Shown here in pieces: positions 237-60,841 of a stretch of DNA of 60,861 nucleotides (its first letter is position 1; the number at the start of each line of letters is the position of its first letter). The stretch comes from Lachnospiraceae bacterium. Lineage in GTDB: Bacteria > Bacillota > Clostridia > Lachnospirales > Lachnospiraceae. The notes beneath the pieces were generated by a model, which searched no databases, had not been told where the DNA came from, and saw only the letters and a program-made list of their open reading frames with translations. The position numbers and the translations under genes were made by a program. Location: the NCBI GenBank assembly GCA_910575605.1, contig CAJTEW010000020.1, positions 1-60,861 of the forward strand, written 5' to 3'.

Positions 237-815
237 ATGAAACGGGAAATTTCATTAATGAAGCATATACTGGGAAAAAATTTTACAAAAAGAAACCGCT
301 TCACCAGACAGTGTATCGGTGAAGCGATGATTGCTTTAATGCAGGATAAAGATTACGAAGAAATTACAGTTTCTGATATCGTAAAGCGGGCCGGTGTGTC
401 ACGCATGACATTTTACCATTACTTCCAGTCCAAAACCGATGCCCTTAATAACTATCTCCATGAGATAATCGAATGCTATTTAGAGGAATGCAGCCGCTCT
501 CTCGGCGTTAATAATTTCTATGATGCTGCCCATGTGCGCCATGCTTTTTTATTCTTTGACCAGTATTCTGAATTTTTCCTTACACTGGCAGGGGCAAACC
601 TCCATTCACTAATGATACAGGCTATCAATGACTATATGATACGATTCGTGGATCCGGTCTATCCCCGCTCCCTTTACGAACTCTACTATTATGGTGGAGC
701 ACTGCTTAATATCTTTCTGAAATGGGAGGAAGATGGAAAGGTTGAATCCGTAGACGCAATTGTAGGGGTTATCTGCCACTGCTGCCACATTCCAGCCTCT
801 TTGGGGACGGGGTAA
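237..815 (+). CDS. TetR/AcrR family transcriptional regulator, C-terminus formed by a repeat
   Basis: A 192-residue TetR-type repressor. The DNA-binding helix-turn-helix is at about residues 27-66 (ITVSDIVKRAGVSRMTFYHY is a typical recognition region). The rest is an all-helical ligand-binding and dimerisation domain with no recognisable ligand signature. AAGGGGAA lies 5-6 bases before the ATG. The final residues (SLGTG and the TAA stop) are read from the left arm of the hairpin repeat at 803-879, so the original C-terminus may have been replaced or shortened by insertion. It converges on the GH13 gene. Its target is unknown; TetR proteins usually control themselves and an adjacent transporter, but none is next to it here. 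Confidence 0.85.
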   Translation: MKREISLMKHILGKNFTKRNRFTRQCIGEAMIALMQDKDYEEITVSDIVKRAGVSRMTFYHYFQSKTDALNNYLHEIIECYLEECSRSLGVNNFYDAAHVRHAFLFFDQYSEFFLTLAGANLHSLMIQAINDYMIRFVDPVYPRSLYELYYYGGALLNIFLKWEEDGKVESVDAIVGVICHCCHIPASLGTG

Positions 816-879
816 AATTCAAAAGTGCCTGTCCCCAAAGAGGCTGGGGACAGGCACTTTTGAATTTTACCCCGTCCCC
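803..879. repeat. Hairpin repeat copy 1 (subfamily A), 34-bp perfect arms
   Basis: Arms 803-836 and 846-879 are perfect reverse complements, separated by the 9-base loop AAAGAGGCT. Each arm begins GGGGACGGGGTAAAAT and ends CCTGTCCCC. The loop is also the reverse complement of the flanking AGCCTCTTT at 794-802, so 794-807 can instead pair with 832-845, a competing 14-bp hairpin. It separates the convergent TetR and GH13 genes and contains the TetR stop codon. There is no U-run, so it is not a standard intrinsic terminator, although the RNA hairpin would be very stable. Confidence 0.95.
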
Positions 880-887
880 GACTCATC

Positions 888-2555
888 TTAATATAACACC
901 GCCGCGCATTCATACGCCGCAAGCGTTACTGATTCCTCAAGCGTGTCCCTTCCATAATTGGAAATCAGCACTCTTCCCACACACCCTTTTAAGTCTTGCG
1001 GAATTTCCCAGACAATTTCCTTTTCTGTAAAATTACATACGACTAAAAGCTTCTGTCCTTCATAAGAACGCGTGTATACATATAATTCCCTGCTGTCCGG
1101 CAGAAGGAGCTCATAATCTCCATACACAATAATCTCATACTCCTTGCGAAGCCTTATAAGCTTCTGGTAATAATGGAAAACAGAATCTTCTCTCTCCATC
1201 TGTTCCTTTGCATTAATTTCTTTATAATTGGGATTCACGGCTATCCACGGCGTACCCGACGTAAAGCCTGCATAGGAACTGTCATCCCACTGCATGGGTG
1301 TCCTTGCGTTGTCTCTCCCTTTATAGCTGATATAGTCAAACATCTCCTCCGGCGCTATGATTCCCTTTTCTGTTAGTTCATAATACGCATTGATACTCTC
1401 AATATCACGGAACTCCTCCATGGACGTAAATGGGTAATTTGTCATGCCAAGCTCCTCCCCCTGGTAGATGTAAGGGGTTCCCTGCATCATATGAAGACAG
1501 GTGCCAAGGAGCTTTGCCGAACGTTCGCGGTACTTCGGGCTGTCATTTCCGATGCGGGACAGCATCCTAGGCTGATCATGGTTACACCAGTAAAGACTGT
1601 TCCAAGCTTTGCCGGCAAGCTCTGTCTGCCATTTACTCATGACAGCTTTAAGCTCTGGCAGACGGATTTTATTATGATTCCACTTAAAGCTCTCACCCCC
1701 GTCCAGATCCACATGTTCGAACTGAAATACCATATTCAGCTCTGTCCCTTCAGAGGATGCATATTTTTTCGCCTCCTCTACCGTAACGCCGGAACATTCC
1801 CCTACTGTAATAAGATCGTATTTTGAGAGGACCTTACGATTCATCTCCTGCAGGTATTCGTGTACATGAGGCCCATTGGCACAGCCCGGGTCGCCATAAC
1901 CGCTTTGTCCCACCTCTCCGTCCTGAAAATCCGGCTTCTTAGAGATAAGGCTTATCACATCCATACGGAAACCGTCAATTCCTTTCTCACACCACCAGTT
2001 CATCATGTCGAATACTTCTTTTCTCACTTTCTGATTATCCCAGTTAAGGTCCGGCTGTTTTGGAGAAAACAGATGCAGGAAATACTGTCCGCTTCCTTCA
2101 TCATATTTCCATGCAGAACCCCCGAAGCAGGAACCCCAGTTGTTAGGTTCTTTCCCATTTTTTCCATCTCTCCATATGTAGTAATCCCGGTAAGGATTAT
2201 CTTTTGACTTCCTGCTTTCCACAAACCATGCATGCTCATCAGAGGTATGGTTCACAACCAAGTCCATCATAATCTTAATCCCCAGACTATGTGCCCTAAA
2301 AAGCATACGGTCATAGTCCTCCATTGTCCCGAATTCCTCCATAATTGCTTTATAATCGCTGATATCGTATCCGTTATCATCATTGGGGGACTGATATACC
2401 GGCGACAGCCAGATTACGTCAATTCCCAATTCCTTTAAATATTCTAATTTACCTGTGATTCCGTTCAAATCTCCAATTCCGTCCCCATTACTGTCACAGA
2501 AGCTCCTTGGATATATCTGATATACTACGCTTTCTTTCCACCATGTCTTTTCCAT
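888..2555 (-). CDS. GH13 alpha-glucosidase, probable oligo-1,6-glucosidase
   Basis: A 555-residue cytoplasmic (no signal peptide) alpha-amylase-family glucosidase cutting glucose from short alpha-glucosides. The GH13 conserved regions are present in order: DLVVNHTS (98-105), GFRMDV with nucleophile Asp199, VGECSG with acid/base Glu253, and NHDQPR with Asp327. The residue after the nucleophile is Val200; in Bacillus enzymes Val there is linked to alpha-1,6 activity and Thr to alpha-1,4 activity, so isomaltose-type substrates are favoured. Length matches the family (about 555-560). AGGAGG stands before the ATG. It is the last gene of the minus-strand regulatory half of the sugar locus and stops 8 bp from repeat copy 1. 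Trehalose-6-phosphate hydrolase is a close relative, but no PTS transporter is nearby. Confidence 0.9.
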   Translation of the reverse strand: MEKTWWKESVVYQIYPRSFCDSNGDGIGDLNGITGKLEYLKELGIDVIWLSPVYQSPNDDNGYDISDYKAIMEEFGTMEDYDRMLFRAHSLGIKIMMDLVVNHTSDEHAWFVESRKSKDNPYRDYYIWRDGKNGKEPNNWGSCFGGSAWKYDEGSGQYFLHLFSPKQPDLNWDNQKVRKEVFDMMNWWCEKGIDGFRMDVISLISKKPDFQDGEVGQSGYGDPGCANGPHVHEYLQEMNRKVLSKYDLITVGECSGVTVEEAKKYASSEGTELNMVFQFEHVDLDGGESFKWNHNKIRLPELKAVMSKWQTELAGKAWNSLYWCNHDQPRMLSRIGNDSPKYRERSAKLLGTCLHMMQGTPYIYQGEELGMTNYPFTSMEEFRDIESINAYYELTEKGIIAPEEMFDYISYKGRDNARTPMQWDDSSYAGFTSGTPWIAVNPNYKEINAKEQMEREDSVFHYYQKLIRLRKEYEIIVYGDYELLLPDSRELYVYTRSYEGQKLLVVCNFTEKEIVWEIPQDLKGCVGRVLISNYGRDTLEESVTLAAYECAAVLY

Positions 2556-2585
2556 ACTTTTCCTCCTAAATCTATAAAAATCAGA

Positions 2586-3416
2586 TTATTGAAACAATTC
2601 CTGCATAACTCTCTCCCGGCATCTCTGCCGATATTCACTAGGGGATATGCCATAAACACCTTTAAATGCACGGGAAAAATGCAGAAGGTTGGGATAGCCT
2701 ACTAAAGCTCCTACATCACCCACCGGCATATTGCCTGTCCGAAGCTCTGCCGCAGCCTTTTCCATCCGAAACCTGATTAAAAACTGCTGCGGGGACTGTC
2801 CGGTAACAGATTTAAAAACTTTTCCGAAATAGCTTCTGTCCAGCCAGCACCGTCTTGCCAGCTCCTCAACTGATATATGTCTGGAATAATTCTGCTCAAT
2901 ATACCGGACTGCCCCCTCTACATAGGTTTCACTGTTTTTTCCTCCCGTCGTCTGTCCCTTAAATCGGCATGTCCTTACAAGGCAATCCATAAATAGATAC
3001 AGATGCCCTGTCATTTTAAGAGGACATTCCTCCCCGCTTTTTATGAGCTCCAGCATACACTGAAAAAGCATGTCTCCCTGCTCAGGCTCCTCTGGCATAT
3101 ATACCGGCTGGTTTTCCGTCAAACCGGAAAGCTTTGTATACTCTCCTGCTCTTAAACCTCCAAATTCGATCCATACGAAATCCCAGCTTCCCTCCGGGAA
3201 AACCTTCATGTCTTTTCCCTTTCCCGGTTCTACTAAAAATCCCATCCTTTCGGACAATGTGTAGACAAGAGTTTCTTTTTTCTCTTTTTCTACCCGCAAA
3301 ACTCCTTTTCCTGAAACAATGTAACAAAAAAGATAATGACCGCCAGATTCATACTGCTTTATCTCCCACGGACATTGCTTTTTTTCATACCCGCATCGAT
3401 AGATCAATAAATCCAT
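2586..3416 (-). CDS. AraC family transcriptional regulator (first paralogue)
   Basis: About 276 residues: an N-terminal cupin-like sugar-sensing domain and a C-terminal double helix-turn-helix of about 100 residues (ISVEELARRCWLDRSYFGKV, then GALVGYPNLLHFSRAFKG and GISPSEYRQR). The start at 3416 is chosen because its AAGGAG is 11 bases upstream and the protein then aligns with the second AraC gene at 4654-5508 (MDLxIYxxGYEK); the longer ORF would begin with a GTG overlapping the ribosome site. It is transcribed toward the glucosidase gene 30 bp away, probably in one unit. Two LacI-type palindromes stand upstream. Likely an activator for this sugar locus. Confidence 0.9.
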   Translation of the reverse strand: MDLLIYRCGYEKKQCPWEIKQYESGGHYLFCYIVSGKGVLRVEKEKKETLVYTLSERMGFLVEPGKGKDMKVFPEGSWDFVWIEFGGLRAGEYTKLSGLTENQPVYMPEEPEQGDMLFQCMLELIKSGEECPLKMTGHLYLFMDCLVRTCRFKGQTTGGKNSETYVEGAVRYIEQNYSRHISVEELARRCWLDRSYFGKVFKSVTGQSPQQFLIRFRMEKAAAELRTGNMPVGDVGALVGYPNLLHFSRAFKGVYGISPSEYRQRCRERVMQELFQ

Positions 3417-3495
3417 AAAGCTTACCACTCCTTAATTTGTATTTAATTGTGCAGTCCTTTGAACATAAGAAGTTCAATACGCATACGTCAATCAG

Positions 3496-3570
3496 GTTTT
3501 GCGCATAACTATTTTCTAGCTAGGATTATAGCTAAAATAAATACATCTTTCAAGAGGTTTTGCGCAAAAC
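3496..3570. promoter_or_regulatory. Pair of LacI-type operator palindromes
   Basis: GTTTTGCGCAAAAC (3557-3570) is a perfect 14-bp palindrome with the central CG typical of LacI-family operators. GTTTTGCGCATAAC (3496-3509) matches it at 13 of 14 positions. Their centres are 61 bp apart, near six DNA turns, which would allow a tetrameric repressor to loop the DNA. They lie between the LacI gene and the AraC/glucosidase pair. A third TGCGCA core (5556-5561) precedes the divergent transport operon. Confidence 0.7.
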
Positions 3571-3609
3571 GTCACATTACACAATACCGGAAACAGAGTT
3601 TTATTCAAT

Positions 3610-4620
3610 TTACCTGTTTTTTACAGAATCACGAAGAACGAGAGTTACCGGAAGACGTTCTGTCATAGATATTTTCCGTTCCCCTTGTATAAATGCAAGG
3701 AGCTTCCTCACCGCATGCTCCGCCTTCCTCTCTACATCCTGGTGCACCGTAGTAAGCAGCGGCCTGCACATTACGGCGCTTTCTGTATCGTCAAACCCTG
3801 CCACTGACAAATCCTCCGGGACAGAGATTCCCATGTCTCTTAAAACTGCCATTGCTTCCACCGCATAATAATCAGAGGCAAAAAACAAGGCATCATATTC
3901 AGACGCAAGCTGTGCAAGATATTTCCTGTAATACTCCCTTCTTGTCCTTCTCTCCTCTGGAATTATTATATGCCGCACACATGCATCTTTAACACCATAA
4001 TCTTCATGTGCCTTACATACGCCCTTCCAGCGCTCATGATCCACACCCACGTCATTGTCTGCCACAAATCCAATCTTTCTGTGGCCTGTATCCAGCAGAT
4101 ATTTTGTCATAAGGGCGCCGCCGCCTTTATCGTCAAGCCCTACATTTGCCATTCTTTCGTCGTCATAATATACGTCAATAGACACTATAGGCACCTTACA
4201 GCTCCCCTGGAGCCTTAGGTTATCTCCTGTGCCAAAACCAATTGTAATCAGTCCTTCCACATTCCAGGTAGCTGCAAACTGAATACCTTCCTCAGGTGTT
4301 GCTGTAAAATGCAAAAGCATATAGTAATTCCTTTCGTAAATTTCCCGCTCCAGTGAGCGCAGCAGTATATTGGCAAAAGGGTGGCCTTCTACACAGCGTT
4401 TTTCTCCTCCTGGCTCCGCCACAAGAATACCGATAACCCGGGTACTTCCTCCAGCCAGCATTCTCGCTCCCATGCTGGGGATATATTCCCTGTCCTTTAA
4501 AAGCTTTTCAATTCTTTTTACTGTTTCCCCAGACACTTTTTTACGGTTGCCGTGAATCACATTTGACACAGTCGTAGGGCTTACCCCGGCTTCCCTTGCA
4601 ATATCCTTTATACGTATCAT
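3610..4620 (-). CDS. LacI family transcriptional regulator
   Basis: About 336 residues. An N-terminal LacI helix-turn-helix (IKDIAREAGVSPTTVSNVIH) with hinge helix is followed by a periplasmic-binding-protein-like sugar-sensing domain ending in the usual LPVTLVLRDS strand. The start at 4620 (MIRIKDIA) is preferred: it is an ATG with GGAAGG just upstream, whereas the longer ORF starts with GTG inside that ribosome site. The gene lies between the two AraC paralogues, all on the minus strand. It is the natural candidate to bind the TGCGCA-centred palindromes at 3496-3570, probably repressing the locus until an alpha-galactoside or alpha-glucoside is bound. Confidence 0.92.
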   Translation of the reverse strand: MIRIKDIAREAGVSPTTVSNVIHGNRKKVSGETVKRIEKLLKDREYIPSMGARMLAGGSTRVIGILVAEPGGEKRCVEGHPFANILLRSLEREIYERNYYMLLHFTATPEEGIQFAATWNVEGLITIGFGTGDNLRLQGSCKVPIVSIDVYYDDERMANVGLDDKGGGALMTKYLLDTGHRKIGFVADNDVGVDHERWKGVCKAHEDYGVKDACVRHIIIPEERRTRREYYRKYLAQLASEYDALFFASDYYAVEAMAVLRDMGISVPEDLSVAGFDDTESAVMCRPLLTTVHQDVERKAEHAVRKLLAFIQGERKISMTERLPVTLVLRDSVKNR

Positions 4621-4653
4621 CTGTCCTTCCACCTTTTTATTTTTTCATTCTTA

Positions 4654-5508
4654 TTATCTGTCTATTATTTTATTCTTCTGCCTGTACTCTCTGGGAGACA
4701 TACCATATACCCCTTTAAAGGCCCGGGAAAAATGCAGAAGATTCGGATAACCTACAGAATTACCTATATCACTGACTGAATCGTTGCCGACAATCAAAGC
4801 GTCCGCCGCTTTTGTCATACGGTACCGGATAAGAAAATCCTGGGGAGACTGGCCAACTACCTTTTTAAATACCTTCCCAAAATAGCTTCTGTCCAGCTGA
4901 CATTTTTTTGCAACATCTTCTATTGTGATATTTTTATCATAGTTATGCTCGATATATACAACCGCTTCTCTTGCATAGAACTCGCTTAGCTTCCCGCCCT
5001 GAAGCTGTTTTTTCGAGGACGAGTACTTAATGAGGGCATCTACGAAAAGATACAGGTTTCCAATGAGTTCTATAGAGGACGCATTCTGACTCTTTACAAT
5101 GGTCATCATCCGATCCTGTATGATTTTTCCATATTCCAAATCGGAAGGAGAATATACCGGATTCTTATAGGAAATGCCTGCAAGCTCCACATACTCCTTT
5201 GCCCGCAGGCCTCCGAATTCTATCCAGACATATTCCCAGGGCTGCGCCTTATCTGCATAATAGGTATTCACATATCCTGGCTCAATAAGAAAGCCGTTTC
5301 CTGCGCCAATATGATAGTAGCTGGTATTATCTTTTTCATCATTAGCGTGAAGGCTTCCTTTCCCTGAAATTACATAATGGAACAGATAGTTATTCCTTAC
5401 GTAAGGCCCAAAAGAATGGAGCGGTTCACACTTTTCATACCCATATTGGTATATTGTAAGGTCCATAAACCGCTCGTCCTGAAATACCGAAAATAAATGA
5501 TTGATCAT
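4654..5508 (-). CDS. AraC family transcriptional regulator (second paralogue)
   Basis: A 284-residue AraC protein with the same architecture as the product of 2586-3416: sensing domain, then the double helix-turn-helix (ITIEDVAKKCQLDRSYFGKV; GNSVGYPNLLHFSRAFKG). Long identical stretches between the two, especially in the DNA-binding half, point to a duplication. The start at 5508 has AAAGGAG at ideal distance and gives 14 extra N-terminal residues relative to the first paralogue. It is divergent from the transport operon starting at 5778, so it is the likelier direct activator of that operon across the 269-bp intergenic region. Confidence 0.92.
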   Translation of the reverse strand: MINHLFSVFQDERFMDLTIYQYGYEKCEPLHSFGPYVRNNYLFHYVISGKGSLHANDEKDNTSYYHIGAGNGFLIEPGYVNTYYADKAQPWEYVWIEFGGLRAKEYVELAGISYKNPVYSPSDLEYGKIIQDRMMTIVKSQNASSIELIGNLYLFVDALIKYSSSKKQLQGGKLSEFYAREAVVYIEHNYDKNITIEDVAKKCQLDRSYFGKVFKKVVGQSPQDFLIRYRMTKAADALIVGNDSVSDIGNSVGYPNLLHFSRAFKGVYGMSPREYRQKNKIIDR

Positions 5509-5683
5509 AATGCGTCTCCTTTCCTTTCGCCTTCTATTGTCATTTTATCTAAAAATGCGCATCACTTTTTGTAAATTTTAACGAAAATTTATGTTTTCTT
5601 TATATTATATACCATAATACGTCTATACTTCAACATTTGCAACACAATCTAGCATTTTGATATATTTCAGACACATCTTCACA

Positions 5684-5712
5684 TTTACCTTCCTTCGTCA
5701 AACTGCTATTAT
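5684..5712 (+). promoter_or_regulatory. Predicted promoter of the sugar transport operon
   Basis: TTTACC (5684-5689), a 17-bp spacer, and TATTAT (5707-5712) preceded by TGC, an extended -10 box. It sits 66 bp before the first gene of the operon. The weak -35 and strong extended -10 fit a promoter needing an AraC activator. The upstream region contains a TGCGCA core (5556-5561) similar to the LacI-type operators. Confidence 0.5.
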
Positions 5713-5777
5713 TCTATGCAGAAATACACAATAATTCATGCAACTTACCAAAGCATGTAAAAAAGGAGAGGTGTGGA

Positions 5778-8794: not shown

Positions 8795-10993
8795 ATGGCG
8801 ATTATACTTGACAAGACAAATACTTTATTTACCTTGCAGACAGACCATAGTATGTACCAGATGAAAGCAGACAGGTATGGAGTTTTACTCCATACCTACT
8901 TTGGTAACAGGGGTTCTGTTTTTGACTATTCTTATCTGGTTACTTACGCGGATCGCGGCTTTTCCGGCAATCCCTATGACGCCGGAGACGACCGCACATA
9001 CTCACTGGATGCGCTTCCCCAGGAATATCCTTCCTATGGAAGCGGAGATTATCGGACAGGCGCGCTGAAGGTACGATATCCTGACGGAAGCTTTTCTACT
9101 GAACTTAAATACAAAAGTTTCGAGGTGAAGAAGGGAAAATATTCTCTTCCAGGCCTTCCGTCTGTATACGAAACCAAACATGCACAAGCCGACACTCTTA
9201 TCATTACCCTTGAAGATACGAGGCGCCTCTTCTACGTGCATCTGTATTACGGTGTTTTTGAAAAGCTGGATATTATTACAAGGGCTGTGCGTATCGAAAA
9301 TCACAGTGATGCTCCTTTTTATCTGGAAAATGTACAGAGCACTTCTGTCGATTTCCTTCATGGCAGCTTTGACCTTCATACCTTCTACGGAAGGCATGTG
9401 AAGGAGCGCACGCATCAGCGTGCACCGGTTTTCCACGGTATACAGTCCGTCGGAAGTACCCGGGGTGCATCCAGTCATCAGTATAATCCATTCCTGATTC
9501 TCTCTGACAGGGATACTTCGGAGGATACTGGACGCTGTTTCGGACTTTCTCTCTTATACAGCGGAGATTTTCTTGGAATGGCGGAGCATGACCAATTTGA
9601 CCAGACAAGAGTGCTCCTTGGCATCCACCCGGAAAACTTTTCCTGGCGGCTAGAGCCCGGTGAATCTTTCCAGGCTCCTGAGGCTGTCCTGGCATACTCA
9701 GAAAGAGGACTTACAAATCTTTCACAGATTCTTCACAGGGCTTTTCGGAACAATTTGTGCCGCGGGATCTGGAAGAAAAAACGCCGTCCAGTCCTCTTAA
9801 ACAGCTGGGAGGGAGTCTATTTTGATTTCAACGGCGATAAACTGGTATCAATGGCAAAAGATGTTGCAGAGCTTGGCGTGGAGTTATTCGTCATGGATGA
9901 CGGATGGTTTGGAAAACGAGAGCGCGACGTATCTGGCCTTGGCGACTGGATTGTAAATGAAGATAAGCTTGGCTGTTCCCTCCGTGATGTATCCGAACGC
10001 ATTCACGCACTGGGAATGAATTTCGGCATCTGGTTTGAGCCGGAGGGCCTAAGCGAGGACAGTGAGCTTTACCGCACACATCCAGACTGGGCTCTTAAGA
10101 TTCCAGGAAAACCACCGGTACGGGCACGTTACCAGCTCCTTCTTGATTTTTCCAGAGAGGATGTACGGGAATATATTCTACATCATGTATGCCAGGTATT
10201 CGACAGCGCCAGAATTGAGTATCTGAAATGGGATTTAAACCGGAGCCTCTCGGACCTTTACAGCGCCGCCCTTCCCCCTGAAAGGCAGGGAGAAACCGCT
10301 CACCGCTATGTTCTCGGTGTATATGATATGCTTGAAAAATTGCATAAACGCTATCCTGATATGCTGATTGAAGGCTGCAGCGGCGGCGGCGGACGCTTTG
10401 ATGCTGGTATGCTCTATTATACTCCACAGATTTGGTGCAGCGATGATACAGACGCTATCGAACGTTTAAGCATTCAATATGGTACCTCCTTTGCATATCC
10501 TGTCAGTACCGTAGGCTCTCATGTATCCAAATGCCCTAATGAGCAGACAGGACGTATAACGCCTCTTAACACCCGAGCCACAGCCGCCATGTCCGGTACC
10601 TTCGGCTATGAACTTGACCCGGACGAGATGACAGAAGAAGAAAAGAGCGCTGTAAGGCGGCAAATTCAGGAATTTAAGGATTATTATGATTTAATTCAGT
10701 ATGGGAACTATTACCGCCTGACATCTCCTGATACAGCCGAAAGCTGGCATTGTTGGCAGTTTTCGTCAGAGGATGGAAGCGAAGCGCTGCTCTTTGCAGT
10801 ATCTCTTCAGATTCATCCAAATGGGCCTGGATGCTGGTGCAGGCTAAAAGGACTTAAGGCCGATACTATTTACGAAGTAAACGGGGCACGCTATCCCGGA
10901 GATGTGCTTATGAATGCAGGACTTCCATTGCCGACAGCGAAAACAGAATACGAAAGTTTACGGCTTCACATAGTTGGGGACGGGGTAAAATGA
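8795..10993 (+). CDS. GH36 alpha-galactosidase, C-terminal residues from a repeat
   Basis: A 732-residue cytoplasmic alpha-galactosidase releasing galactose from melibiose, raffinose and stachyose. It has an N-terminal beta-sandwich (to about 330), then the catalytic barrel: LFVMDDGWFG (364-373), WFEPEG (413-418), KWDLNR with nucleophile Asp480, GCSGGGGRFD (527-536), and CSDDTDAIER with acid/base Asp550 by analogy with characterised GH36 enzymes. Length matches the tetrameric bacterial group (about 730). A GAGGA ribosome site precedes the ATG. The last residues (GDGVK and the TGA stop) are read from repeat copy 2, suggesting a changed C-terminal tail. It is the last gene of the transport operon and breaks down the imported oligosaccharide. 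Confidence 0.95.
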   Translation: MAIILDKTNTLFTLQTDHSMYQMKADRYGVLLHTYFGNRGSVFDYSYLVTYADRGFSGNPYDAGDDRTYSLDALPQEYPSYGSGDYRTGALKVRYPDGSFSTELKYKSFEVKKGKYSLPGLPSVYETKHAQADTLIITLEDTRRLFYVHLYYGVFEKLDIITRAVRIENHSDAPFYLENVQSTSVDFLHGSFDLHTFYGRHVKERTHQRAPVFHGIQSVGSTRGASSHQYNPFLILSDRDTSEDTGRCFGLSLLYSGDFLGMAEHDQFDQTRVLLGIHPENFSWRLEPGESFQAPEAVLAYSERGLTNLSQILHRAFRNNLCRGIWKKKRRPVLLNSWEGVYFDFNGDKLVSMAKDVAELGVELFVMDDGWFGKRERDVSGLGDWIVNEDKLGCSLRDVSERIHALGMNFGIWFEPEGLSEDSELYRTHPDWALKIPGKPPVRARYQLLLDFSREDVREYILHHVCQVFDSARIEYLKWDLNRSLSDLYSAALPPERQGETAHRYVLGVYDMLEKLHKRYPDMLIEGCSGGGGRFDAGMLYYTPQIWCSDDTDAIERLSIQYGTSFAYPVSTVGSHVSKCPNEQTGRITPLNTRATAAMSGTFGYELDPDEMTEEEKSAVRRQIQEFKDYYDLIQYGNYYRLTSPDTAESWHCWQFSSEDGSEALLFAVSLQIHPNGPGCWCRLKGLKADTIYEVNGARYPGDVLMNAGLPLPTAKTEYESLRLHIVGDGVK

Positions 10994-11052
10994 AAAATAC
11001 CCCGTCCCTGACGGACCTGGGGACGGGGTATTTTTCATTTTACCCCGTCCCC
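10976..11052. repeat. Hairpin repeat copy 2 (subfamily A), 33-bp perfect arms
   Basis: Arms 10976-11008 and 11020-11052 are reverse complements, loop TGACGGACCTG; TT/AA flanks extend the pairing outward by two bases. Each arm starts GGGGACGGGGTAAAATG and ends CCCCGTCCC. Read in either direction the arm encodes Gly-Asp-Gly-Val-Lys-stop, and both convergent genes (alpha-galactosidase and the CarD-like gene) use it as their C-terminus. The same boxes as copy 1, but the A/T-rich middle differs. Confidence 0.95.
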
Positions 11053-38437: not shown

Positions 38438-38491
38438 GGGGACGTAGTAAAATTAATTTTACTACGTCCCAGATTGAAAATACCCTGTCCC
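38438..38491. repeat. Hairpin repeat copy 3 (subfamily B), truncated
   Basis: 38439-38470 is a perfect 32-bp palindrome without loop (GGGACGTAGTAAAATT and its complement). On its right is the outer box AGATTGAAAATACCCTGTCCC (38471-38491, 21 bp including the box), but the matching left outer arm is missing; only an extra G remains at 38438. Compared with copies 4 and 5 it has lost one outer arm. It stands between dtd (ends 38495) and the MarR operon promoter. Confidence 0.9.
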
Positions 38492-44192: not shown

Positions 44193-44268
44193 GGGACAGG
44201 GTAAAGTGCAATCTGGGACGGAGTTTTTCTAGAAAAACTCCGTCCCAGATTGCACTTTACCCTGTCCC
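44193..44268. repeat. Hairpin repeat copy 4 (subfamily B), perfect 76-bp palindrome
   Basis: Arms 44193-44230 and 44231-44268 are exact reverse complements with no loop; the centre is TCTAGA. Order in each arm: GGGACAGGGT, AAAGTGCA, ATCTGGGACGG, AGTTTTTCT. The right arm contains the stop codon and last residues (GTG) of the MATE gene. The left arm begins 2 bp from the NiaR-type operator. Confidence 0.97.
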
Positions 44269-45570
44269 CTCCCGTTTTAAAAGCAGTACAGACACTACAA
44301 GACACAGCGCCTCCGAAAGCGCCGCAGCCCACCAGATACCCTTTCCTCCAAATAGAGCTGTCAAAATCACCATACTGATTATAAGCATCACAAGCCCGCG
44401 TCCCAGGGATATCACAACTGCTGTCCCTGGTTTCTCTATCGCGGTAAAATATCCTGCTGCCGCCACATTATAGCCTGCCAAAAGAAAGGAAAGAATGAAT
44501 ACACGAAATACTTGAGCCGAATATTTTCGAAGCTCTATAAGATTTGCTGATATGAAAATACCTACAATCTTATCTGCAAGAAAGCAGCAGACACCCACTG
44601 CAAGTACTGAAGCAGCTGCAACCGTACATAGTTCGTATTTAAGAAGCCGCCGGCATTTTTCTTTTTCTCCCTTCCCATAATAATAGCTGACCAATGGCTG
44701 GCACCCCTGCGCCACCCCTACCATAGACATTATAACGATAGCATTTATATAGGAAATAATGGAATAACTGACTATGGCGTCCTCATTTAAATACCGGATA
44801 ATCGCCTGATTAAACACAAAGGTAATAATTCCCGCCGACAGCTCCGTGATTCCGGACGGAAATCCATTCCTCATCTCCCGCAAAATAAGTACTGGACGGA
44901 AAGGATACCTGCAGAATTTGATAGTTCCCTTTTTCCCTAAAAAGTGTTTCAGATAAAAGACAATTACCACTGTCTGAGAAATCCCTGTCGCAAATGCAGC
45001 TCCGGACACGCCTTTATGCAATACAAATACGAACAGATAATCCAGTATACAATTTAGAATAACTCCAAGGCTTACAATCACCGTAGCCAGCGCCGGATAA
45101 CCGTCCGTACTGATTAATATTTCAAAGGAATAGGATAAAATAAAGCAGACTGCAAAAGGTGCAATGGTAGAAATATATTCTTTTACATAGGGCAGCGTCG
45201 TCTCTGTTGCTCCAAGAAATTTTCCAAAACCAGTAATCCCTCCAAGCACTCCGACGGTAATAAGCAGAGATACTGCCGTCAGCACCGTCATATTCTGCGA
45301 AAATACTTCCCTCGCCTCCTTTATCTTCTTCTGGCCGAATAAAAGAGCCACAATCGTTGACGTTCCCACCGCAAAGGTAAGAGAAAGTGCAAACATCCCT
45401 GTCACAAAAGGAGAGGCTATATTGACTGCCGCCAGCGCCGTCTCCGATACCCCTCTTGCCACAAACATGCCATCTACCATTGTATACAGGGCAAATACCC
45501 ACTGAGATGCCACTGCTGGCAGAATAAACTTAAAAAAATCATGCTTTAAAGACTTCCCCTCTAATTTCAT
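44257..45570 (-). CDS. MATE family efflux transporter
   Basis: About 437 residues from the ATG at 45570 (GGAGAGTAGG before it); the ATG at 45582 is also possible. Twelve helices in two six-helix bundles, with PAVASQWVFALYTMVDGMFVAR in the first and AQGCQPLVSYYYG in the second. MATE proteins use Na+ or H+ to export drugs or metabolites. The last residues (EGTG-stop) come from repeat copy 4. Divergent from the MerR gene at 45672; its promoter has a 19-bp spacer holding the MerR operator, so it is probably induced by the MerR ligand. Confidence 0.9.
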   Translation of the reverse strand: MKLEGKSLKHDFFKFILPAVASQWVFALYTMVDGMFVARGVSETALAAVNIASPFVTGMFALSLTFAVGTSTIVALLFGQKKIKEAREVFSQNMTVLTAVSLLITVGVLGGITGFGKFLGATETTLPYVKEYISTIAPFAVCFILSYSFEILISTDGYPALATVIVSLGVILNCILDYLFVFVLHKGVSGAAFATGISQTVVIVFYLKHFLGKKGTIKFCRYPFRPVLILREMRNGFPSGITELSAGIITFVFNQAIIRYLNEDAIVSYSIISYINAIVIMSMVGVAQGCQPLVSYYYGKGEKEKCRRLLKYELCTVAAASVLAVGVCCFLADKIVGIFISANLIELRKYSAQVFRVFILSFLLAGYNVAAAGYFTAIEKPGTAVVISLGRGLVMLIISMVILTALFGGKGIWWAAALSEALCLVVSVLLLKREGTG

Positions 45571-45617
45571 CCTACTCTCCATCTCCCATCAATACTTCTG
45601 ACAAATACTTCTTTTTT

Positions 45618-53714: not shown

Positions 53715-53735
53715 ATGTATTTATCATACTAAATA

Positions 53736-54711: not shown

Positions 54712-54761
54712 GAAAGACAGAAACATTTTTTACCAGACAATACTTATAGGAGAAATTTTCT

Positions 54762-55958
54762 ATGCTTTTAAAAGATAAAACAGTGCTTCTCGGCGTTACC
54801 GGAGGGATTGCCGCCTATAAAAGTGCTTCTCTGGCAAGCCTTCTTGTAAAGGCCGGTGCCACAGTACGGGTCATTATGACAGAACATGCACAAAATTTTA
54901 TAAATCCAATTACCTTTGAAACTCTCACGGGACATAAATGTATCACTGACACCTTTGACCGGAATTTTGAATTTCACGTAGAGCATGTCGCCCTTGCAAA
55001 AAAAGCAGATGTGATTCTAACTGCCCCTGCGACTGCCAATATTATTGCCAAGCTGGCCCACGGAATTGCGGATGACATGCTGACTACAACGATTCTTGCC
55101 AGCCGGGCGCCAAAAATCATTGCTCCGGCTATGAACACAGGCATGTATGAAAATCCTGTGACTCAGAATAACCTGAAGCTTTTAGCTGAATATGGCATGG
55201 AAATTGTCCCTCCCTCCTCTGGAAGACTTGCCTGCGGTGATGAAGGTGCGGGAAAGATGCCTGAGCCGGATGTTCTGTTTCAGTATATCGTCCGTGAACT
55301 GGCATATGAAAAGGATATGGCCGGACTGCATGTGATGGTGACTGCAGGCCCTACCTGTGAGTCCATTGACCCAGTGCGGTACATCACGAACCATTCTACA
55401 GGAAAAATGGGTTACAGCATTGCAAAGATATGTATGCTTCGCGGAGCAGACGTAACCCTTGTAACAGGAAGGACGTCCCTTGTGCCGCCTCCGTTTGTAG
55501 ACGTGGTCTCCGTCACATCGGCAAAAGATATGTTTGATGCTGTAACTGCAAGAAGTAATGACATGGATGTTATTGTCAAGGCCGCTGCTGTCGCCGATTA
55601 TCGTCCTTTATACGTGGCAGAGGAAAAAGTCAAAAAGTCTGATTCTTCACTTTCTATCGAGCTGGAAAGGACGGACGATATTCTGAAATACCTGGGAGAA
55701 CATAAAAGGTCTCATCAGTTTCTGTGCGGCTTCTCCATGGAAACTGAACATATGCTGGAAAATTCCCGCAGAAAGCTCACAGAGAAAAATCTTGATATGA
55801 TTGTTGCAAATAATTTGAAAATACAGGGCGCCGGATTCGGGACAGATACTAATATTGTTACTATGATTACTCCAGATTCTTTAACGGAGCTTGCACTTAT
55901 GTCAAAGGACGAAGTTGCTGTAAAACTTATAGACTTTATTTTAGAACGAAGAAAATAA
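54762..55958 (+). CDS. coaBC: Bifunctional phosphopantothenoylcysteine decarboxylase/synthase
   Basis: 398 residues. CoaC half (1-180): His75 (HVEHVALA), PAMN with Asn125, and GRLACGDEGAGKM with Cys158. CoaB half: VTAGPT, Asn210 in RYITNHSTGKMG, and AAAVADY with Lys289. All four key residues fall at the same numbers as in E. coli CoaBC. It couples phosphopantothenate with Cys and decarboxylates the product to phosphopantetheine on the route to CoA. Confidence 0.97.
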   Translation: MLLKDKTVLLGVTGGIAAYKSASLASLLVKAGATVRVIMTEHAQNFINPITFETLTGHKCITDTFDRNFEFHVEHVALAKKADVILTAPATANIIAKLAHGIADDMLTTTILASRAPKIIAPAMNTGMYENPVTQNNLKLLAEYGMEIVPPSSGRLACGDEGAGKMPEPDVLFQYIVRELAYEKDMAGLHVMVTAGPTCESIDPVRYITNHSTGKMGYSIAKICMLRGADVTLVTGRTSLVPPPFVDVVSVTSAKDMFDAVTARSNDMDVIVKAAAVADYRPLYVAEEKVKKSDSSLSIELERTDDILKYLGEHKRSHQFLCGFSMETEHMLENSRRKLTEKNLDMIVANNLKIQGAGFGTDTNIVTMITPDSLTELALMSKDEVAVKLIDFILERRK

Positions 55959-55968
55959 AGTCTTTTCA

Positions 55969-56021
55969 AAAAAACTGCCTGGGATGGTGAAGTAAAGCCT
56001 CACCATCCCAGGCAGTTTTTT
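55969..56021. terminator. Bidirectional terminator between coaBC and radA
   Basis: 22-bp perfect stem: AAAAAACTGCCTGGGATGGT-GA (55969-55990) with its complement (56000-56021), loop AGTAAAGCC. A-run before and T-run after let it end both convergent transcripts. Confidence 0.95.
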
Positions 56022-56029
56022 AGCATTTT

Positions 56030-57379
56030 TTATATTAGGCCCATCGCCTGATTAACCGACTTCACGCCAATAACTTCGATTCCGACAGCCTTCCCCACTG
56101 TTTTAAGTGATACTTCCGGTATGATGCATGTCTTAAAGCCCAGCTTTTTCGCCTCCGCTACACGCTGCTCCGGCATCGTCACAGCGCGGACCTCTCCGCT
56201 TAAGCCCACCTCACCGAACACAATCGTATCCCCAGAAAATGGTCTATTTTTATAGCTTGAAACAATAGACATAACAATTCCAAGATCTGTGGCCGGCTCG
56301 TTCATGCGGATTCCACCTGCAATATTTACATAGGCATCATAATTTGAAAGAGGCAGACCCATCCTTTTTTCCAGAACTGCCATTAAAAGATTAACTCTAT
56401 TGTAGTCCACGCCTGCAGCTGTCCTTCTGGGCATGCCGAAATTCGTTTTGCACACCAGCGCCTGAATCTCCAGCAGCATGGGACGGGTTCCTTCTATGGC
56501 ACAAGCCACCACTGATCCGGAAGCACACTCTGGCCTTCCATTTAACATATATTCAGAAGGGTTTTCCACTTCTATGAGACCTTTTTCCCGCATCTCAAAC
56601 ACACCGATTTCGTTCGTGGAACCAAATCGGTTTTTTACACTGCGCAGAATCCGGTAGGACGCATGCCTGTCTCCTTCAAAATAAAGCACTGTATCTACCA
56701 TATGCTCTAAAACCCTCGGACCGGCGACTGTTCCCTCCTTCGTCACATGTCCGACAATAAAAATCGAGATGCCAAGCCCTTTGGCAAGCTGCATAAACAC
56801 GTTCGTAGACTCTCTTACCTGGGATACGCTCCCTGGTGCAGAGGCTACTGTCTCATCATACATTGTCTGAATAGAATCAATGACTGTCATATCAGGCTTC
56901 TGCTCTTCAATAATCTCCCGGATGATATCTAAGTTTGTCTCGCAAAGAAGATACAGGCTGTCTGAAAAATCTCCCATACGGTTTGCCCTCATCTTAATCT
57001 GCTTTAATGATTCCTCACCGGATATATACAAAATCTTTTTATTTTTGTCTGACAGCCTCTGGCATACCTGCAGAAGAAGGGTAGACTTCCCGATTCCGGG
57101 ATCACCACCTACTAATACAAGAGAGCCGGGCACAATTCCTCCGCCCAAAACTCTGTCAAGCTCTCCTATGCCGGTAATCTCCCTCTCGTCCTCGTCTGCC
57201 TTTACACTGGAAAGAACTACCGCTTTTGCTTCTTTTTTGATTTTTATGGCTCCTGCTTTCGCAGGAGCCGCTTTTTCCTCAACAAATGTATTCCATTCCT
57301 TGCACATAGGACACTGTCCGAGCCATTTGCTCTCTTCATGCCCACAGTTTTGACAGAAAAATATAGTCTTTTTTTTCAT
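56030..57379 (-). CDS. radA: DNA repair protein RadA
   Basis: A 449-residue RecA-like branch-migration helicase. Zinc finger Cys9, Cys12, Cys23, Cys26; Walker A GDPGIGKST (92-100); the RadA-specific KNRFG motif; and a C-terminal Lon-like domain. It processes recombination intermediates with RecA. It follows the gene at 57384 by 4 bp without a clear ribosome site, so translation is probably coupled. Confidence 0.96.
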   Translation of the reverse strand: MKKKTIFFCQNCGHEESKWLGQCPMCKEWNTFVEEKAAPAKAGAIKIKKEAKAVVLSSVKADEDEREITGIGELDRVLGGGIVPGSLVLVGGDPGIGKSTLLLQVCQRLSDKNKKILYISGEESLKQIKMRANRMGDFSDSLYLLCETNLDIIREIIEEQKPDMTVIDSIQTMYDETVASAPGSVSQVRESTNVFMQLAKGLGISIFIVGHVTKEGTVAGPRVLEHMVDTVLYFEGDRHASYRILRSVKNRFGSTNEIGVFEMREKGLIEVENPSEYMLNGRPECASGSVVACAIEGTRPMLLEIQALVCKTNFGMPRRTAAGVDYNRVNLLMAVLEKRMGLPLSNYDAYVNIAGGIRMNEPATDLGIVMSIVSSYKNRPFSGDTIVFGEVGLSGEVRAVTMPEQRVAEAKKLGFKTCIIPEVSLKTVGKAVGIEVIGVKSVNQAMGLI

Positions 57380-57383
57380 ATTT

Positions 57384-57797
57384 TTACTTTTTCACAACTT
57401 TAACAGCTACACATTTATCAGGTGAAAGTTCGGCACTGACACTTAGCTTCCCGCTTAAATTTGTCTTCATATCACCCACATTCACATCATCCATATATAC
57501 CACATATTCACTGTCAGCTTCAAGCTCAAGGGTAATCTGTGCATCCCTGTCCCCTGATACGGAAAAGCTTATCTCCTTTTCTGATGCCTTAAAATTCTCC
57601 ACTGCCGTCCCTGGTACAGATTCATACACAAACATACCATTCTTCTCAACCTTTGTAATCTCAGCAAACGTCTTTACCTTATAAATATCTCCTTGGAACT
57701 CAAATCCATCAAGCTTCGTCTTGCTTTTTAGTGTATAATCTCCAAAGCTTAAGTTTCCGTCTGCTCCTGCTCTTAAAAGTTCTTTTACTGCTGCCAC
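57384..57797 (-). CDS. Conserved protein of unknown function between clpC and radA
   Basis: 137 residues from a GTG start with AGGAGG eight bases upstream. Beta-strand rich, with no Cys except one near the end, no signal peptide and no membrane helix. Proteins of this type are often labelled endosialidase in Lachnospiraceae databases, but nothing in the sequence supports a catalytic function. Its place between clpC and radA suggests a housekeeping role. Confidence 0.75.
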   Translation of the reverse strand: MAAVKELLRAGADGNLSFGDYTLKSKTKLDGFEFQGDIYKVKTFAEITKVEKNGMFVYESVPGTAVENFKASEKEISFSVSGDRDAQITLELEADSEYVVYMDDVNVGDMKTNLSGKLSVSAELSPDKCVAVKVVKK

Positions 57798-57848
57798 CTG
57801 TGCTTCCTCCTATGGTTTTTAGTATCTCTATTATATCTCATCTCTAAA

Positions 57849-60281
57849 TCAATTTGTAGCCTTCGGTGTAAATTTTATTTCTTTTTTAGACATCCCTGCA
57901 GCAATATCCATGCCCCGCTTCACCTCTCCGGAAAGCACTGCCTCTGCAAGCTTATCTTCAAGCTGGCTCTGCACGGCACGTCTCAACGGCCTCGCCCCGT
58001 ACTTTTTATCTGTACCGGTCTCCACAATATGCTTCTTTACCGAATCACGTATGGTAAGGCTGATATCTAACTGCTCTTTTGCACGCATTACAACCTCCCT
58101 GCACATCAAGCCTACAATGCGTTTCATTTCATCCTCTCCAAGAGGATGAAATACAATGGTTTCGTCTATTCTATTTAAAAATTCTGGACGGAATATGAGC
58201 TTAATTTCATTCAAAACATTGGACTTCATACGCTTATAATCCCCCTCTTTATCCTCCTTTGCATTAAATCCAAGCTTCTTCGGGTCTATAATTGCTTGAG
58301 CTCCGGCATTAGAGGTCATAATAATAACCGTATTGCGGAAATCCACCTTCCGTCCCTGTGAGTCTGTAATATGTCCGTCATCCAACACTTGAAGGAGAAT
58401 ATTAAACACATCTGGATGTGCCTTTTCAATCTCGTCAAACAAAAGTACTGAATATGGATGACGCCGTACCTGCTCACTTAACTGTCCGCCGTCATCATGT
58501 CCTACATAGCCCGGGGGAGAACCTATCATCTTTGCCACACTGTGCTTTTCCATGTATTCTGACATATCCACACGTATCATAGACTCCTCATTACCAAACA
58601 GTGTCTCTGAAAGTGCTTTTGAAAGCTCTGTCTTTCCAACGCCGGTAGGCCCAAGAAACAAAAATGAGCCTATGGGACGCCCTGGATCCTTTAGCCCTAC
58701 CCTTCCGCGCCTTACTGCCCTGGCTACTGCGGTAACTGCCTCCTCCTGTCCGATGACACGCTTATGGAGAGTCTGCTCCAGTTTTTGAAGCCTTGCCCCT
58801 TCTGATTCCTGAAGCTTCTGCACTGGAATTTTTGTCCATTCAGACACGACATCTGCAACATCGTCCTCTGTAACCTCTACCTGTTTCCTGGCATTTCTTG
58901 CCTGAAAGGTTTTCTTTGTATGAAGAAGCTTTCCTTCCGCCTCTTCCTTCTCTTTTCTCAATACGGATGCTTCTTCCATATTACCCTCACATATTGCATC
59001 CTCTAGCTCTTGTGACAGCACAGAAATCATATTTTCCAGCTCATAGATTCTCTCTGGAACCTTAAATCCTCTAAGGGATACTTTAGAGCACGCCTCGTCC
59101 AGTACATCAATAGCCTTATCTGGAAGGAACCGGTCGCTGATATAGCGGTCTGACAGGTGTACAGCCGCCTCCAGGGCTTCCTCTTCTATCTCCACATGAT
59201 GATGGGCCTCATACCGTGTTTTTAGTCCATTTAAAATATCAAGACAGTGGGCTGCATCCGGCTCCTCCACGGTGATCGGCTGAAATCTTCTTTCCAGGGC
59301 TGCGTCTTTTTCAATGTATTTCCGGTACTCTACTATCGTTGTTGCACCAATCAGCTGGAACTCTCCCCTTGCAAGAGCCGGCTTTAAAATATTAGATGCA
59401 TCCATAGCACCTTCTGCCCCACCTGCACCGATGATGGTATGCACCTCATCCAAAAATAAAATAACATTTCCTGCGGCCTTTACCTCCTGAATCAAGCGCT
59501 TCATCCGCTCCTCAAACTCTCCGCGGTATTTGGAGCCTGCAATCATTCCTGCAAGATCCATCGTCAGAATACGTTTCCCCTTCATACCCTCCGGCACAAC
59601 TCCTGTGGCAATCTGGGCTGCAAGCCCTTCTACTACTGCCGTCTTTCCCACTCCCGGTTCTCCTACAAGGCATGGATTATTCTTTGTCCGTCTGCTTAAT
59701 ACCTGCATCAGCCTGTGAATCTCTGTATCTCTGCCTATAACCGGATCAAGCTTTCCTTCCTCCGCCTGCATAGTAAGATCTGTCCCGTACTGGGAAAGGA
59801 CACTTCCCCGGCCGTTCTCCTGAGCCATCTCGCTCTGGTATTCCTTTAAATCGACTCCAATTACATTTAAAATATCCTGGAATATCTTCTGGATATTAAT
59901 ATTCAGGGTAAGGAGAATACGTGCACCAACACAGTCTGCCTCACGAATCATAGCAAGCAGCATGTGCTCTGTCCCAATCTCCTCGGAATGAAAACGAAGG
60001 GCCTCATTCTTACTCTCCCCCAGAATATATTCAAGTCTGGGGCTCCTCTTTGGACTGCCCTCAACTGCCACATCTCCCACCGGGGAGATCAATTCCTCTA
60101 CAATTTTATATATATTTTCCTCTTCTACTCCATTAGCCGCCAGAATCTGTCCTGCAACCCCGATATAGCATCTTCTAAGGCCCAGGAGCAGATGCTCTGT
60201 TCCGATATATGGATGATGTAATTCCTTTGCAATAGCCTTTGCAGTCTTTAACACATCATTTGCCTGTTTTGTATAATTCAT
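57849..60281 (-). CDS. clpC: ATP-dependent Clp protease ATP-binding subunit ClpC
   Basis: An 810-residue AAA+ unfoldase for ClpP. Two N-terminal Clp repeats (1-145), AAA-1 with GEPGVGKT, a UVR-like segment ([21 protein letters not shown]) in the short middle domain, AAA-2 with GPTGVGKT, and KLGF at about 665, the loop that docks to ClpP. The ctsR-mcsA-mcsB genes that accompany clpC in Bacillus are absent here. AAAGGAA site. Confidence 0.95.
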
Positions 60282-60325
60282 GTTGCCTGTTCCTTTCTAC
60301 TTATATATGCTGCACATACATTCTA

Positions 60326-60700
60326 TTACCCAAATGTATATTCGTCAAACAATTCATCTACCAGCTCATGCACTTCCTCCCTGCTGATATTTTTACAGCA
60401 TCCTTTGGCAAGAGCAATCCGAAGCTCCCTCTTTAATTCCTCATGGGCATGAATTTTATTAATATCAATCGCAATCACCGCTCCTTTTCTTCTGTCAAGC
60501 TGTATAAAGCCTTGCTGCTTTAATATAGAATATGCCTTATTCACTGTATGCATATTAATACCCACCGTATCTGCAAGCTGCCGGACAGAGGGAAGCGTGT
60601 CGCCCTCATGAAGTACTTCGGTCGCAATGCCCATGATAATCTGGTGCTGCAGCTGCACATAAATGGCTTCGTCACTGTTAAAATCAATCTCTATAAGCAT
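60326..60700 (-). CDS. GntR family (YtrA type) transcriptional regulator
   Basis: 124 residues: winged helix-turn-helix (PSVRQLADTVGINMHTVNKAYSILKQQGFI) with a short C-terminal helical tail, typical of the YtrA subfamily that controls adjacent ABC transporters. The gene precedes clpC by 44 bp on the same strand. Its usual ABC partners may lie right of the window or be absent. Good AGAGGTGG site. Confidence 0.92.
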   Translation of the reverse strand: MLIEIDFNSDEAIYVQLQHQIIMGIATEVLHEGDTLPSVRQLADTVGINMHTVNKAYSILKQQGFIQLDRRKGAVIAIDINKIHAHEELKRELRIALAKGCCKNISREEVHELVDELFDEYTFG

Positions 60701-60765
60701 TCTTCCACCTCTTTTGTTATATATAGGTTAGCACACATAGAATATTTATGCAAGACTTTTGTATT

Positions 60766-60841
60766 AGGGACAGGGAAAAACGAATCTGGGACGGGGTTTT
60801 TCTAGAAAAACCCCGTCCCAGATTCGTTTTTCCCTGTCCCT
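60766..60841. repeat. Hairpin repeat copy 5 (subfamily B), perfect 76-bp palindrome
   Basis: Arms 60766-60803 and 60804-60841, exact reverse complements without loop, centre TCTAGA. Order: AGGGACAGGG, AAAAACGA, ATCTGGGACGGGG, TTTTTCT. Same boxes as copy 4 but different A/T-rich segments. It lies upstream of the GntR gene at the window edge; the neighbour on the right is unknown. Confidence 0.97.

What the first reader, a model, noticed from the sequence alone, without database searches (positions are those of the whole stretch)
803..60841. A family of five long perfect hairpin repeats with conserved boxes and changing middles
Copies at 803-879, 10976-11052, 38438-38491, 44193-44268 and 60766-60841 share GGGAC(A/G)GGG boxes. 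Within a copy the two arms are identical over 33-38 bp (copy 3 keeps a perfect 16-bp inner pair but has lost one outer arm). Between copies the A/T-rich part beside the boxes differs wholly. Only a process that copies one arm onto the other, or a single-strand hairpin that is itself the unit of copying, readily gives this pattern. REP elements mobilised by RAYT (IS200/IS605-like) transposases are the closest known analogue; no such gene is in the window.
Basis: partly seen in the sequence, partly recalled or inferred. Interest (0 to 1): 0.85.

Follow-up and report, generated by a model that had tools for sequence, protein, structure and literature searches.

The report
RAYT-linked palindromes with mirrored arms
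A Lachnospiraceae bacterium and its close relatives carry many small DNA palindromes, tied to one transposase-like gene, whose two halves change together at fixed chromosomal sites, as if one half is repeatedly copied onto the other.

Summary
The five hairpins are real and belong to a dispersed family: 88 exact box pairs in the genome, 0 for the reversed pattern. Copy 3 is not damaged; hairpin-plus-tail is an ordinary form. So this is a RAYT/TIRYT-type REP family in Lachnospiraceae.

The unusual part is its evolution. In the nested class each copy has its own arm sequence, mirrored on the other arm in 26 of 33 copies (G003) and 8 of 9 (G000); 0 of 20,000 permutations reach either. Sites are mostly shared between species, yet five orthologous palindromes show 15 paired against 6 one-sided changes; ordinary hairpins show 5 against 26. 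G-U intermediates are nearly absent (1 of 648 cells). Two loci carry a reverse-complement copy of a flank. Against this, over all element classes one-sided changes are common.

Best explanation: a RAYT spread the family long ago; fold-back DNA synthesis now rewrites arms in place. REPIN compensation is known, so: new variant.

The parts
803..879 (.). Copy 1: hairpin-spacer-hairpin palindrome (><><), 35-bp perfect arms, 7-nt spacer; the + strand ORF 237-815 ends inside it
   Evidence: the G003 orthologous site holds a '>><' element
792..802 (+). Left flank CCAGCCTCTTT of copy 1, the apparent template of a fold-back copy; conserved as CCTGCCTCCTT in G003
   Evidence: (repeat I6)
837..847 (-). 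AAAGAGGCTGG: exact reverse complement of 792-802, sitting in the spacer of copy 1
10976..11052 (.). Copy 2: hairpin-spacer-hairpin palindrome (><><) between convergent ORFs; the + strand ORF 8795-10993 ends inside it
   Evidence: the same site holds a box hairpin in G004, G002 and G001, a diverged hairpin in G003, and a hairpin without the boxes in G005
38438..38491 (+). Copy 3: ordinary hairpin-plus-tail element (><<): hairpin 38438-38470, tail 38471-38491
   Evidence: G003 has no element here (short stretch resembling a remnant), G002 has a '><' at the site
44193..44268 (.). Copy 4: nested perfect palindrome (>><<), arm code TAAAGTGC; the - strand ORF 44257-45582 ends inside it
   Evidence: the orthologous palindrome in G003 (C3:75624) has 5 paired, 3 one-sided and 1 other change
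60766..60841 (.). Copy 5: nested perfect palindrome (>><<) at the contig end; the same copy as the end of contig C13
   Evidence: the orthologous palindrome in G003 (C3:96244) has 2 paired and 0 one-sided changes

Best explanation
The five copies are members of a REP-like (TIRtron-type) family that belongs to one RAYT gene, kept between proS and cca in this Lachnospiraceae genus. GGGAC boxes 20-22 nt apart in the stem are the fixed parts, probably the RAYT's binding or cleavage sites (inferred). Spread by the RAYT happened before the sampled species split (inferred from occupied orthologous sites and RAYT linkage). Since then the elements have stayed largely where they are, and the nested palindromes are edited in place: when a strand is single it folds into the hairpin, DNA synthesis switches template to the opposite arm, and a mutation in one arm is copied to the other. 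Sometimes synthesis runs past the hairpin foot, copying a flank into the spacer or across to the other side. Shown: family, RAYT linkage, within-copy arm identity, paired changes at orthologous sites, two flank copies. Inferred: the polymerase mechanism, and that it needs no intact RAYT.
For: Family and linkage: 88 box pairs against 0 reversed; RAYT between proS and cca with hairpins on both sides in 6 of 6 congeners; Y1_Tnp 43.9 bits against a cut-off of 23. Mirrored arms: 26 of 33 and 8 of 9, 0 of 20,000 permutations each; covariation score 0.319 against 0.080 shuffled, 0 of 500, and at most 0.085 when slid. In place: orthologous arm codes differ by a mean of 1.75 of 11 against 5.06 for all cross-species pairs; 267 of 100,000 random pairings are as close, so arms descend in place and are not swapped for unrelated ones. 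Paired changes: 15 paired, 6 one-sided, 2 other over 173 pairs at five loci, where independence at p=0.18 predicts 1.9 and 51; ordinary hairpins 5 paired and 26 one-sided, Fisher p=1e-4. DNA rather than RNA: 76 cells with both sides changed, 1 G-U cell, 16 unpaired of 648. Flank copies: copy 1 spacer and G002:C8 against G004:C41, 12 nt; complementary flanks of 6 nt or more in 6 of 41 symmetric elements, 0.64 expected; one loop inversion (G004:C35:33562 against G002). RAYT appears interrupted in G003 and split in G001, yet G003 has the most mirrored palindromes.
Against: Counted automatically over all element classes, one-sided changes are as common as independence predicts: G000/G003 10 paired and 49 one-sided at 15 sites (expected 1.35 and 61.5); G004/G002 3 and 21 at 21 sites (expected 0.15 and 26.3) (this includes sites whose architecture changed). 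So strict pairing holds for the nested class, not for all. One of the five nested loci has 0 paired and 3 one-sided changes. Some stem variants are lineage-specific and recur at many sites (GTAG stems 14 of 77 cores in G000, 0 of 31 in G003), which conversion between copies would also give. Two flank copies are few and were noticed after the fact. Direction of change was not polarised by an outgroup at most loci.
Confidence: 0.6

Rival explanations
1. Whole-element conversion or recombination between dispersed copies: one hairpin replaces another at a fixed site, so both arms change at once.
For: Common stem variants differ between lineages and appear at many old sites: GGGGCA stems 18 of 35 cores in G002, 10 of 33 in G004; GTAG stems 14 of 77 in G000 and 0 of 31 in G003. 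Architecture changes at the same site.
Against: Nested-class arm codes are mostly unique (32 distinct of 33 in G003, 9 of 9 in G000), and orthologous codes resemble each other, so they were not taken from elsewhere. The copy-4 codes were not found in any other element of the sampled parts of G000, G002, G003 or G004.
Confidence: 0.2
2. Selection on an RNA or DNA stem with compensatory point mutations, as proposed for REPs and REPINs.
For: Elements lie downstream of genes: 34 convergent, 40 unidirectional and 3 divergent of 77 placed elements against 106/585/118 background gaps, as transcribed stems would. Compensatory changes are reported for REPIN spacers (PMC3116915, passages).
Against: One G-U cell of 648, although GC-GU-AU is the easy path for RNA; one mismatch in a 36-bp stem should cost little; adjacent pairs change together (13-14, 29-31, 14-15, 15-16, 21-22).
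Confidence: 0.12
3. The RAYT keeps moving the palindromes, and each new insertion is copied from one folded strand (hairpin as the unit of copying).
For: RAYT linkage in 6 of 6 congeners; RAYTs and REPINs as mobile pairs (PMC3116915, passages).
Against: Orthologous sites are mostly occupied: 16 of 20 (G000 to G003), 16 of 17 (reverse), 21 of 24 (G004 to G002), 21 of 21 (reverse), and 8 of 8 anchored G003 nested sites. No clean empty site was seen. RAYT appears broken in two of six genomes.
Confidence: 0.06
4. Assembly artefact of metagenome bins.
For: Palindromes sit at contig ends (copy 5/C13, C3:6, G003:C15:14), where assemblers break.
Against: Independently binned species share the sites, with different arms that still pair.
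Confidence: 0.02

Closest known systems
TIRYT / TIRtron families (Di Nocera 2013, PMC3733652, section 16 and passages; Quentin 2018 subclass 2.1, PMC6006769, section 20 and passages)
   Same: RAYT-like gene flanked by inverted repeats that share a GGGG(A/T)(C/G)A(C/G)-type motif and are dispersed as singles and dimers; GGGGACAG occurs in copies 1 and 4.
   Different: Inner boxes here read GGGACGGGG; boxes beside the RAYT often have three G's; copy number is higher than the 'moderately abundant' TIRs described; this is Lachnospiraceae. Terms for Firmicutes or Clostridia do not occur in PMC3733652.
REPINs (Bertels and Rainey 2011, PMC3116915, passages)
   Same: Two inverted REPs form one long hairpin with fixed ends, a variable middle and compensatory changes.
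   Different: No GTAG/GTGG foot (6 of 173 ends, background 2.0%). Here the changes are followed at orthologous sites. An excised intermediate was not tested.
GTAG REPs with RAYT (REPtrons; Nunvar 2010, PMC2817692, passages)
   Same: Single-locus RAYT with REPs in inverted orientation on both sides.
   Different: The tetranucleotide foot is absent.
CGTC-tagged REPs (PMC3733652)
   Same: CGTC is present in CCCCGTCCC.
   Different: CGTC is paired inside the stem here, and a transposase gene is flanked by the repeats; the paper found none flanked by CGTC repeats.
Template-switch (quasipalindrome) mutation (PMC8794818, passages; PMC7202029, abstract start in a listing)
   Same: One event copies arm to arm, keeps perfect stems, or inverts loops.
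   Different: Those works concern RNA genes or reporter sites; here it would act across a mobile-element family.

Membership tests
RAYT gene (REP-associated tyrosine transposase) | Y1_Tnp domain with HUH motif | tested here: met
   PF01797 43.9 bits, cut-off 23; SNHFHLL and RYIHLNPVKAG read in the sequence (reading these as HUH and RAYT motifs is recalled)
RAYT gene (REP-associated tyrosine transposase) | NCBIfam REP_Tyr_transpos model above cut-off | tested here: inconclusive
   79.9 bits against a cut-off of 80, E 1.6e-22
RAYT gene (REP-associated tyrosine transposase) | flanked by two inverted repeats of the family | tested here: met
   6 of 6 congeners; in G001 one of the two is detected without its tail
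GTAG REP | GTAG/GTGG tetranucleotide at the hairpin foot | tested here: not met
   6 of 173 ends within 8 nt, background 2.0%
TIRYT / TIRtron | flanking repeats with the GGGGWSAS motif | tested here: inconclusive
   GGGGACAG in window copies 1 and 4; flanks of the G000 RAYT read AGGGACAGG
TIRYT / TIRtron | C-terminal helix-turn-helix extension | tested here: inconclusive
   about 130 residues beyond the Y1 domain; Pfam gives no HTH match
TIRYT / TIRtron | repeats dispersed as singles and dimers | tested here: met
REPIN | two inverted REPs forming one hairpin, variable middle with compensatory change | tested here: met
REPIN | excision or transposition as a unit | not testable with these tools
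   needs population reads
CGTC REP | unpaired CGTC tag at one end | tested here: not met
   CGTC lies in the paired stem

The most novel reading that the evidence does not exclude
A dedicated palindrome-maintenance cycle: the RAYT (or its N-terminal Y1 core, still present in G003) nicks at the GGGAC boxes and primes fold-back synthesis at resident elements, so the arms are actively rewritten and each locus carries a mirrored, slowly changing arm code.
Probability: 0.12. Interest if true: 0.85.

Novelty: new variant of a known kind. Interest (0 to 1): 0.6.

Why it matters
How long stems stay perfect while their sequence changes is an old question for REPs and RNA genes. Here nature offers dozens of short palindromes with locus-specific arm sequences at shared sites in related species, so arm-copying rates, tract lengths and flank capture could be measured by comparing strains. 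It also adds a RAYT-repeat system from Lachnospiraceae to a literature that, in the passages I saw, is built mostly on Proteobacteria, Cyanobacteria and Acidobacteria.

Tried and rejected
Truncated copy 3: rejected, it is a standard form. A search of viral contigs with one stem pattern gave 0 hits. Simple recent transposition: looked for empty sites in two species pairs and found none that was clean; G003:C1:97377, G004:C35:7564 and G004:C35:23129 have no counterpart element, but the surrounding stretch differs too. Density from the sample is biased, because 20 of the 61 stretches were chosen on known hits; the 400 kb of contig C1 held only 2 elements. The automated all-class pair count gave only a modest excess of paired changes because many sites changed architecture; it is reported as evidence against. 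A first smaller count on equal-length cores gave 3 paired and 3 one-sided (G004/G002, 19 hairpins) and 7 paired, 3 one-sided and 1 other (G000/G003, 6 hairpins). In the covariation count I used 18 of the 19 76-nt palindromes, dropping G003:C5:25374 (a longer inner part), and left out the 74- and 75-nt ones. In one search the cross-species arm codes came from 26 of 33 G003 copies (those with identical arms) and 9 G000 copies (left arms). In the other-hairpin control, G004/G002 gave 9 hairpins with no change at all, so it does not inform. Paper searches that led nowhere: 0 papers; 87 papers, 15 listed; none of these 15 titles concerns REPs.
Full report
OBSERVATION. Inverted-repeat search gives perfect arms of 38, 38, 35 and 35 bp for copies 4, 5, 2 and 1. 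Folded as single-stranded DNA they score z = -15.2, -13.8, -7.05, -17.6 and -15.1 for copies 1 to 5. The genome (3.81 Mb, 92 contigs; the window lies on contig C20) has 88 forward matches to GGGACRGGG N10-40 CCCYGTCCC and none to the reversed pattern.

ANATOMY. In 1.25 Mb of sampled sequence I found 71 elements: single hairpins '><' 21, hairpin-spacer-hairpin '><><' 17, hairpin plus tail '>><' 17 and '><<' 6, nested palindromes '>><<' 6, and 4 others. The sample is biased towards stretches with known hits. Window copies 1 and 2 are '><><', copy 3 is '><<', copies 4 and 5 are '>><<'. Fixed parts are the GGGAC boxes; in the 76-nt nested palindromes columns 1-11 and 23-27 never vary among 18 rows while columns 12-17 do. 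Of 77 elements placed between two crude gene calls, 34 lie between convergent, 40 between unidirectional and 3 between divergent genes, against 106, 585 and 118 for all gaps; 3 of 87 centres lie inside a crude ORF. ORFs end inside copies 1, 2 and 4.

THE GENE. One Y1_Tnp gene is found in the genome, on contig C21. It matches PF01797 (43.9 bits, cut-off 23) and the NCBIfam REP-associated tyrosine transposase model at 79.9 bits, just under its cut-off of 80; the only solved relative found by sequence is TnpAREP, 4er8, E = 0.016. In all six genomes of the genus the gene lies between proS and cca with family hairpins on both sides. The gene appears interrupted in G003 (matches to residues 1-126 and 196-253 directly adjacent, open frame 145 aa) and split in two overlapping frames in G001. 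Among 41 related genomes, 7 have the box pairs, the six congeners and G009, and each of these 7 has a Y1 match; 17 of the 24 genomes with a Y1 match lack the box pairs. In G009, from another genus, a Y1 gene is flanked by a related but different hairpin. In a wider draw, 27 of 299 family genomes have the box pair, 13 of them with five or more. The nearest titled record is an uncultured Lachnospiraceae MAG.

WITHIN AGAINST BETWEEN. For hairpin-spacer-hairpin elements, 17 of 20 have the same 15-nt middle on both arms; permutations reach at most 12. For nested palindromes the whole-genome census is 10 matches in G000 (9 copies), 33 in G003, 2 in G004, 1 in G002, 0 in G001 and G005. The 11-nt outer arm code is identical on both arms in 26 of 33 (G003) and 8 of 9 (G000), with 32 and 9 distinct codes; permutations reach at most 7 and 6. 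On 18 aligned 76-nt palindromes, 97.5% of 648 cells pair, 76 cells have both sides changed, 1 is a G-U one-sided change and 16 are unpaired; the covariation score is 0.319 against 0.080 for shuffles (0 of 500) and at most 0.085 when slid.

ORTHOLOGOUS SITES. G003 is the closest relative by DNA. Sites with anchors on both sides were occupied in 16 of 20 (G000 to G003) and 16 of 17 (G003 to G000) cases. For G004 and G002, about 96% identical, it was 21 of 24 by my detector (one more is present with a mutated box) and 21 of 21. All 8 anchored of 16 fetched G003 nested sites are occupied in G000, 3 as '>><<' and 5 in other forms. At five loci nested in both species, stems changed by 15 paired, 6 one-sided and 2 other changes over 173 pairs; independence at the flank divergence of about 0.18 predicts 1.9 and 51. 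Three loci have only paired changes (2, 3 and 5), copy 4 has 5 paired, 3 one-sided and 1 other (those 4 near the loop), and C3:147371 has none paired and 3 one-sided. Ordinary hairpins in the same genomes show 5 paired and 26 one-sided; Fisher p = 1e-4. Four orthologous arm codes differ by 2, 1, 2 and 2 of 11, against a mean of 5.06 for all cross pairs; 267 of 100,000 random pairings do as well. This argues for descent in place rather than replacement.

RESULTS AGAINST. Over all element classes counted automatically, paired changes are 7 to 20 times the expectation, but one-sided changes are also near expectation: 10 and 49 at 15 sites, 3 and 21 at 21 sites. Much of this comes from sites with changed architecture, but strict concert is shown only for the nested class. 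Lineage-wide stem variants leave room for conversion between copies.

FOOTPRINTS OF FOLD-BACK COPYING. In copy 1 the spacer holds AAAGAGGCTGG, the exact reverse complement of the left flank CCAGCCTCTTT; the flank is conserved in G003 (CCTGCCTCCTT), so the spacer copy is the derived one. At G002:C8, orthologous to G004:C41:28307, the right flank carries 12 nt of reverse-complemented left flank that G004 lacks (palindrome extent 14 against 8). Complementary flanks of 6 nt or more occur in 6 of 41 symmetric elements against 0.64 expected on re-pairing. G004:C35:33562 and its G002 counterpart differ by an inverted loop plus one base. At G004:C18:38497 a palindromic insert sits in the loop.

MECHANISM. 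The simplest reading that covers these facts: an old RAYT-linked REP family whose copies now sit still, with hairpin-templated synthesis copying arm to arm. RNA-level compensation is disfavoured by the near absence of G-U cells and by adjacent paired changes; wholesale replacement by the similarity of orthologous arm codes. That G003 combines an apparently interrupted RAYT with the most nested palindromes suggests the copying does not need the full enzyme, but its Y1 core is still there, so this is not settled.

PRIOR WORK. TIRYT genes with GGGGWSAS repeats (PMC3733652, outline, section 16 and passages; PMC6006769, section 20 and passages) are the closest family. Compensatory changes in REPIN middles are reported (PMC3116915, passages), as are complementary changes preserving REP palindromes (PMC2817692, passages). 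REP classes differ between orthologous RAYTs (PMC3686654, passages). Template switching as a maker of perfect stems is argued for RNA genes (PMC8794818, passages). The term TIRYT occurs in two held papers, and no held paper joins 'quasipalindrome' with 'repetitive extragenic palindrom'. I therefore call this a new variant of a known kind.

Noticed in passing
window 55969-56021: A separate 22-bp perfect hairpin without the GGGAC boxes, next to an ORF end.
   Followed up: no
G000 contig C1 (L045-L064) and syntenic G003 C2: 400 kb of C1 holds only 2 family elements, against 5 in the 61-kb window; the distribution is uneven.
   Followed up: partly
L153:14000-16000 (G002:C1) and many G004 contigs: A second dispersed repeat of up to about 185 nt (query 1746-1931) gave most of 41 matches in G004.
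   Followed up: no
G004:C18:38497-38571 against G002: A palindromic insert of about 43 nt inside the loop of a family hairpin, absent in the 96%-identical relative.
   Followed up: partly
L161 (G003) and L163 (G001): The RAYT reading frame appears interrupted in G003 and split in G001, while hairpins remain on both sides.
   Followed up: partly
G000 contigs C5, C15, C21: GTAG stem variants cluster by region in G000 (all four elements with such an ortholog in C5:36-44 kb) where G003 has GGAG or GGGG.
   Followed up: partly
G106, G176, G252, G313: Other family genomes carry 53, 56, 56 and 13 box pairs; G313's are a different, longer repeat type.
   Followed up: no
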